NCBI RefSeq assembly: GCF_004116335.1 | Contig: NZ_PDKN01000001.1 | Span: 248,001-312,000 of the forward strand | Source: Candidatus Marinarcus aquaticus | GTDB lineage: Bacteria > Campylobacterota > Campylobacteria > Campylobacterales > Arcobacteraceae | Reading direction: 5' to 3' | Length of the DNA: 64,000 bases | Shown here: piece after piece, positions 59,830 through 60,102 of the stretch | Layout of the letters: each line of letters opens with the position of its first letter | Numbering within the stretch: the first letter of the stretch is position 1 | The notes under the pieces: generated by a model | Databases searched by the model: none | The model's input: only the letters and a program-made list of their open reading frames with translations | What the model was told of the DNA's origin: nothing | Made by a program: the position numbers and the translations under genes

Positions 59830-59931
59830 TCTAAAACAAGATGAAACTCTGCCCATTTTTGGAAGCTTTTAAAGAGATTGTTTTGTGAAAAAAATTTTAA
59901 AATTTCAGCAAGAGTTAATTTAAAAAGATGT

Positions 59932-59937
59932 TATAAT
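59932..59937 (+). promoter_or_regulatory. Extended -10 promoter of the small RNA unit
   Basis: TGTTATAAT (59929-59937): TG-n-TATAAT, with an AT-rich upstream region. Predicted start about 59942-59945. Confidence 0.75.
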
Positions 59938-59941
59938 AGGA

Positions 59942-60102
59942 GTAACCAAACAATAGGAGGTGTGAATGAGAGGAATCAAACATTCTTAATATTGTTACCA
60001 CAGATAAATCATAAAGAAAAAGTTAACTACACAGTTATAGCATAGATAAAAGTTTATTTATGATTTAAAAAGGGAAGAGCTCATTTGCTTCTTCCCTTTT
60101 TT
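59942..60102 (+). ncRNA. Putative structured small RNA with tiny ORF
   Basis: About 160 bases between an extended -10 promoter and a strong terminator, with no annotated gene. Contents in order: a 5' stem (GTAA..CAAT at 59942-59954 with ATTGTTAC at 59991-59998); an ideal AGGAGG ribosome site (59955-59960); ATG 59966 opening a 7-codon frame (MRGIKHS, stop 59987-59989) whose start codon is held in a GAATG/CATTC hairpin (59964-59968 with 59981-59985); an 11-base perfect long-range stem (60005-60015 with 60057-60067) enclosing TAACT-ACAC-AGTTA; then the terminator. A second frame from GTG 59962 gives 27 residues with a hydrophobic FLILL core. It could be an sRNA, a type I toxin-like mRNA or a leader-peptide RNA; the sequence does not decide. 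Confidence 0.6.
60067..60102. terminator. Bidirectional terminator of the small RNA and the SprT-like gene
   Basis: A-run, GGGAAGAGC / GCTTCTTCCC stem (one bulge) around TCATTT, then six T. The mirror A-run lets it serve the minus-strand gene ending at 60106. Confidence 0.9.

What the first reader, a model, noticed from the sequence alone, without database searches (positions are those of the whole stretch)
59929..60102. Unannotated structured transcript with ideal ribosome site and 7-codon ORF
An extended -10 promoter, a 5' stem, AGGAGG exactly 5 bases before an ATG that is locked in a GAATG/CATTC hairpin, an 11-base perfect long-range stem (60005-60015 with 60057-60067) and a strong terminator are packed into 175 bases between uvrC and a SprT-like gene. 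The 7-residue frame MRGIKHS ends at 59989; an alternative GTG frame gives 27 residues with a FLILL core. GGA elements flank and occupy the hairpin loop (AGAGGA), as in CsrA targets. Candidates: regulatory sRNA, CsrA decoy, leader-peptide RNA, or mRNA of a very small toxin with built-in translational block, like AapA-type systems of Helicobacter.
Basis: partly seen in the sequence, partly recalled or inferred. Interest (0 to 1): 0.78.

Follow-up and report, generated by a model that had tools for sequence, protein, structure and literature searches.

The report
Conserved Arcobacter-family small RNA with mini-ORF
Between two unrelated genes of an Arcobacter-family bacterium lies a stand-alone small RNA gene, not in the RNA family database and conserved across 12 genera of that family, that carries an unusually strong ribosome-binding site and a 7-codon reading frame whose start and stop are kept while its peptide sequence is not.

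Summary
In detail: extended -10, AGGAGGTG five bases before an ATG, a 7-codon frame ending at 59989, and a terminator are all present. They belong to a real, conserved RNA gene. It has BLAST homologues at 73-83% identity in other species and genera. A covariance model finds it in 57 of 104 genomes and 12 of 20 genera of the family, with no credible hit outside it in 399 genomes of the order. Record titles identify the family as Arcobacteraceae. Rfam has no match. The conserved architecture is promoter, HP1 (Shine-Dalgarno and mini-ORF), HP2, HP3, terminator. HP2 and HP3 show strong compensatory change. The frame is 7 codons in 43 of 65 homologues and 12-13 in 19, but without synonymous bias, so the peptide is probably not the product. 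CsrA decoy, AapA-type toxin and leader-peptide readings fail their tests. Best reading: an Arcobacteraceae-specific sRNA whose 5' hairpin captures ribosomes, with ribosome binding or mini-ORF translation controlling the RNA's stability or folding. Its targets and expression are unknown.

The parts
59914..59937 (+). Promoter: T/A-rich block and extended -10 TGTTATAAT (59929-59937)
   Evidence: Conserved as TTTAATnTAAAAnGATGTTATAAT in several genera. An extended -10 (TGnTATAAT or near variant) is found in 51 of 65 homologues versus 0.4% of random 28-base stretches of the same loci, and a TATAAT-like hexamer in all 65.
59949..59996 (+). HP1: 5' hairpin, outer stem AACAATA (59949-59955) with TATTGTT (59990-59996), enclosing SD, start codon and frame
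   Evidence: Outer stem kept in 24-25 of 26 aligned homologues with mostly one-sided changes. SD predicted paired with mean probability 0.86 at 37 C.
59955..59962 (+). Perfect Shine-Dalgarno AGGAGGTG, five bases between GGAGG and ATG
   Evidence: GGAGGT in all homologues except one GGGGGT; spacing nearly constant. Exceptional against the window's own genes.
59966..59989 (+). Mini-ORF, 7 codons (MRGIKHS, TAA)
   Evidence: 7 codons in 43 of 65 homologues, 12-13 in 19; ATG in 62 and TTG in 3; stops TAG or TAA. No synonymous bias.
60024..60037 (+). HP2: TAACT-ACAC-AGTTA
   Evidence: Present at a near-constant place in homologues. All 7 tested pairs show two-sided compensatory change.
60041..60062 (+). 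HP3: CATAGATAA-AAGT-TTATTTATG
   Evidence: All 9 tested pairs show two-sided compensatory change, 97.5% of cells paired.
60005..60067 (+).
   Evidence: Seen only in the window and its sister species; 1.5 kcal/mol better than the HP2+HP3 fold.
60069..60102 (+). Intrinsic terminator: GGGAAGA...TCTTCCC and a run of T
   Evidence: Seen in the fold; a hairpin followed by a T-run is visible downstream of HP3 in the homologues printed. The simple consensus scan did not list it.

Best explanation
The stretch 59914-60102 is a stand-alone gene for a small RNA of about 160 nt (TSS about 59943, inferred) belonging to a family restricted, as far as searched, to Arcobacteraceae and absent from Rfam. Its body is HP2, HP3 and an intrinsic terminator. 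Its 5' hairpin HP1 is a ribosome-capture element: a perfect Shine-Dalgarno, an ATG and a very short frame folded on themselves. Proposed mechanism: ribosome binding at the SD, with or without translation of the mini-ORF, opens HP1 and thereby protects the RNA's 5' end or resets its fold, while the regulatory work is done in trans by the rest of the RNA. The peptide itself is not the product. Shown: gene, conservation, architecture, compensatory changes, conserved SD/start/stop, lack of peptide-level selection. Inferred: transcription, ribosome binding, stabilisation or switching, action in trans.
For: Cross-genus DNA matches and a covariance model found in 57 of 104 genomes of the family but nowhere credible in the rest of the order. 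Covariation score for HP2+HP3 0.793 against 0.247 in shuffles and at most 0.12 when partners are slid. Hairpin scores in HP2/HP3 far above dinucleotide shuffles searched in the same way. Neighbours differ between genera, and the nearest downstream gene is on the opposite strand in roughly 45 of 64 loci (my count), so this is a stand-alone unit. SD near-invariant, start only ATG or TTG, stop only TAG or TAA, lengths 6, 7, 12, 13, 15 in the frame against 1 to 38 in frame +2. Seven codons are kept where the local hairpin changed (L104, L112-L114, L110/L111), but synonymous fraction 0.16 against 0.22 expected. Precedent: as summarised in PMC8708949, a strong SD upstream of a mini-ORF was reported to stabilise a transcript against RNase E with no need of the hexapeptide.
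Against: No expression data. The 7-codon length could partly be a by-product of RNA constraint, because stop and start lie next to conserved stems; the 12-codon class ends at a linker motif (CTAAT) that many 7-codon relatives also have. No target is known. HP1's inner pairing differs between lineages. Homologues were gathered with models seeded on the same motif, which favours conservation of SD and ATG.
Confidence: 0.5

Rival explanations
1. Plain base-pairing sRNA: HP1 with its G-rich segment is a seed or a structural element, and SD/ATG/stop are incidental. No ribosome is involved.
For: No synonymous bias. Codon 6 CAT pairs with the ATG in most members, so much of the frame is explained by pairing.
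Against: SD, spacing and start codon are near-invariant with ATG-to-TTG and TAG-to-TAA changes only; the frame survives where the local hairpin is rebuilt and where indels occurred: minus 3 in L093, and L110/L111 whose middle is rearranged yet still 7 codons.
Confidence: 0.27
2. Dual-function RNA: the 7-12 residue peptide is itself active.
For: Conserved short frame with a perfect SD; recurrent MTK[VD]xHF in several genera.
Against: Peptide changes freely (MTGILHW, MRVLLQW, MTRRTFT, MTKISLFMVVKI), second codon position is the most variable, no synonymous bias.
Confidence: 0.12
3. Type I toxin mRNA with built-in translational block, like AapA/IsoA.
For: SD buried in a hairpin; several genomes carry two copies.
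Against: Peptide of 7-12 residues without conserved sequence; no antisense extended -10 (ATTATAnCA) in 65 homologues.
Confidence: 0.03
4. Leader-peptide attenuator or cis-regulatory leader of the next gene.
For: Short frame followed by hairpins and a terminator.
Against: In the window and in most loci the next gene is on the other strand, and neighbours vary widely.
Confidence: 0.02
5. CsrA-binding decoy.
For: A GGA at the SD and sometimes a second in the HP1 loop.
Against: Only one or two GGA in 55 of 61 members; known CsrB/RsmZ-type decoys carry many (established knowledge).
Confidence: 0.04

Closest known systems
Transcripts stabilised by a strong SD and mini-ORF near the 5' end (as discussed in PMC8708949)
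   Same: Strong SD and a very short frame; in the stabilisation case cited there, the peptide is said not to matter.
   Different: Known cases lie upstream of a gene and act in cis; here there is no downstream cistron, the element heads a stand-alone terminated RNA, and it is conserved across a bacterial family.
Dual-function sRNAs (e.g. VcdRP of Vibrio cholerae, PMC8672173; SR1 of Bacillus subtilis, PMC8501984)
   Same: Stand-alone small RNA with a short reading frame.
   Different: Those encode functional small proteins (VcdP has 29 residues); here 7-12 residues with no conserved peptide, and no base-pairing target known.
AapA/IsoA type I toxin-antitoxin RNAs of Helicobacter (PMC6733600)
   Same: SD occlusion by RNA folding, same phylum.
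   Different: No antisense promoter, no toxin-size peptide; SD is occluded by a local hairpin, not a 5'-3' long-distance interaction.
FourU-type SD hairpins (from memory)
   Same: SD GGAGG faces a run of U in many members, e.g. GGAGGUG with CACUUUU in g10.
   Different: No protein gene downstream; predicted SD pairing hardly changes between 15 and 37 C (0.91 to 0.86).

Membership tests
Bacterial small RNA (stand-alone, terminated) | Own promoter, own terminator, independent of neighbouring genes | tested here: met
   Extended -10 in 51 of 65 and TATAAT-like in 65 of 65; hairpin plus T-run downstream; varied neighbours.
Bacterial small RNA (stand-alone, terminated) | Conserved secondary structure with compensatory changes | tested here: met
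   HP2 and HP3, all 16 pairs.
Bacterial small RNA (stand-alone, terminated) | Transcript detected in cells | not testable with these tools
   No RNA-seq held; no matching paper found.
Dual-function sRNA | Translated frame under selection as a peptide | tested here: not met
   Synonymous fraction 0.16 against 0.22 expected.
Dual-function sRNA | Base-pairing regulation of target mRNAs | not tested
   No target prediction was run.
AapA/IsoA type I toxin-antitoxin | Overlapping antisense antitoxin RNA | tested here: not met
   Antisense extended -10 (ATTATAnCA) in 0 of 65 RNAs; a weaker antisense promoter is not excluded.
AapA/IsoA type I toxin-antitoxin | Small toxic protein of conserved sequence | tested here: not met
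   7-12 residues, sequence not conserved; toxicity itself not testable.
CsrA/RsmA decoy RNA | Many GGA motifs in hairpin loops | tested here: not met
   One GGA in 37 of 61, two in 18.
6S RNA | Match to RF00013 / long rod with central bulge | tested here: not met
   No Rfam match in the window; three separate hairpins. RF00013 finds nothing in the whole genome, so its 6S is not recognised by that model.
Leader-peptide attenuator | Co-oriented downstream gene under control | tested here: not met
   Downstream gene on the opposite strand in the window and in most loci.
FourU RNA thermometer | SD opens with temperature | tested here: inconclusive
   Predicted SD pairing 0.91 at 15 C and 0.86 at 37 C; prediction only.

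The most novel reading that the evidence does not exclude
A family-wide sRNA that uses the act of ribosome capture on a 7-codon mini-ORF, not the peptide, as its own stability or folding switch: a stand-alone regulatory RNA that reads out free ribosomes or translation status.
Probability: 0.25. Interest if true: 0.75.

Novelty: new variant of a known kind. Interest (0 to 1): 0.5.

Why it matters
I found almost no described sRNAs of Arcobacteraceae (Aliarcobacter, Halarcobacter, Poseidonibacter and relatives) in the literature searched here, and Campylobacterota are known to work largely without Hfq (established knowledge). A conserved RNA with a near-invariant perfect SD and a fixed-length, sequence-free mini-ORF makes the question whether ribosome binding can serve an sRNA, rather than a protein, directly testable with a few point mutations.

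Tried and rejected
Rfam at gathering and relaxed thresholds: nothing credible. 6S RNA, CsrA decoy, AapA-like antisense, leader/attenuator, coding by the 27-codon frame: rejected. RNAalifold on the plain MAFFT alignment failed to show the structure because linkers misalign; replaced by register-based arms with loops masked, which carries a selection bias addressed by searching shuffled sequences the same way and by slid partners. The SprT-like protein search in genome contigs gave no relatives. One order-level hit outside the family (L124) looks like the start of an rpsP-like gene and was rejected by inspection. Two genome contigs pattern hits labelled Aquificota and Thermodesulfobacteriota (L127, L141) do not match the model. 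The supplement of PMC6429828, which screened intergenic regions of Arcobacter sp. L and left genus-confined candidates unnamed, could not be read, so this RNA may be one of those unnamed candidates.

Full report
Observation. The RNA folds with z = -3.9 and none of 200 shuffles does as well. No ATG gene in the window (0 of 55) has GGAGGTG upstream and only one has GGAGG.

It is a conserved gene. A plain DNA search finds it in other genera (E down to 1.5e-15 outside the genus; 73-74% identity over about 145 bases in two genera). A covariance model of promoter plus HP1 (R1) finds it in 57 of 104 genomes of the family, 12 of 20 genera. Among 399 genomes of the order, every hit but one lies in this family; the exception looks like the start of an rpsP-like gene. 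Record titles from a pattern scan name Aliarcobacter, Arcobacter, Halarcobacter and Poseidonibacter, so the family is Arcobacteraceae. Rfam has no match.

It stands alone. Neighbours differ between genera: uvrC and a SprT-like gene here, a histidine kinase and groEL in g10, others elsewhere (names of these neighbours are my reading of the sequences). The nearest downstream gene is usually on the opposite strand. Extended -10 elements precede it in 51 of 65 homologues against 0.4% of random stretches, and terminator hairpins follow.

Architecture. HP1 encloses SD, ATG and frame. HP2 (TTTACT-NNNN-AGTAAA type) and HP3 (GTAAATAA-AAGTT-TTATTTAC type) follow at near-constant distance. On 31 distinct HP2+HP3 arm sets, 95.4% of cells pair, all 16 pairs show two-sided changes and the covariation score is 0.793, against 0.247 in shuffles and about 0.1 for slid partners. 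Arms were picked for best pairing in each sequence; the same picking on dinucleotide shuffles reaches the observed median HP2 score in 3.4% and HP3 score in 0.7% of cases. The 31 sets are a hand-thinned selection of the 56 distinct ones; the fuller set was counted with the same outcome. The members of g9 and g14 have other hairpins at this place and were left out of the counts.

The mini-ORF. In 65 homologues the SD is GGAGGT (one GGGGGT), the spacing 4 (61) or 3 (4) bases after GGAGGT, the start ATG (62) or TTG (3), the stop TAG (41) or TAA (24). Length is 7 codons in 43, 12 in 17, 13 in 2, 15 in 2 and 6 in 1; the +2 frame ends anywhere from 1 to 38 codons. The 7 codons persist where the local sequence is rebuilt (MTGILHW, MRVLLQW, MTRRTFT). 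Yet there is no sign of protein-level selection: single-base codon differences are synonymous in 16% against 22% expected, and second positions vary most. Part of the length conservation may come from RNA constraint: codon 6 CAT pairs with the ATG in most 7-codon members, and the 12-codon class stops in a linker motif also present in 7-codon relatives. The SD is predicted paired (0.86 at 37 C).

Mechanism. A near-invariant perfect SD with start and early stop, but a free peptide, points to ribosome binding or the act of translation as the function of HP1. A precedent summarised in PMC8708949 is a strong SD before a mini-ORF stabilising a transcript against RNase E without need of the peptide. 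I therefore propose that HP1 is a ribosome-capture element that protects or refolds the RNA, with HP2/HP3 as the body of a trans-acting sRNA. The gene and structure are shown; transcription, ribosome binding and targets are inferred.

Alternatives. AapA-type toxin: no antisense extended -10 in 65 homologues, no conserved peptide (features from PMC6733600). CsrA decoy: too few GGA. Leader peptide: no co-oriented gene in most loci. 6S: no match. A plain base-pairing sRNA with an incidental frame remains the main rival.

Limits. No expression data. Homologue collection was seeded on the same motif. An earlier intergenic screen of Arcobacter sp. L left genus-confined candidates unnamed (PMC6429828), and its tables could not be checked, so first sighting cannot be claimed.

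Noticed in passing
L045, L057, L099, L112 and other loci of g10, g14, g19: In several genera the sRNA lies beside the 3' end of groEL in convergent orientation (a GroEL-like family recurs among 23 neighbouring proteins), which suggests an ancestral location from which the window's genus has moved.
   Followed up: partly
G108:C1:695743-695840 and 705115-705210; also G003, G019, G023, G031, G032, G034, G119, G122, G123: About ten genomes carry two copies of the sRNA, sometimes with different promoters (L119-L121 against L003/L004).
   Followed up: partly
g10 loci and L095, L096, L099, L103, L108: A 12-codon class (MTKISLFMVVKI-like) exists in Aliarcobacter-like genomes and a few others; in g10 it goes with loss of one base in HP1, and the SD there can pair fully with CACUUUU.
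   Followed up: yes
G000 whole genome: The Rfam 6S model finds nothing in this genome although it rings in five of 14 control genomes; the 6S RNA of this lineage may be diverged or absent.
   Followed up: no
window 60005-60067: In the window's genus HP3 and an 11-bp long-range stem are mutually exclusive with nearly equal predicted energy, a possible lineage-specific switch.
   Followed up: partly
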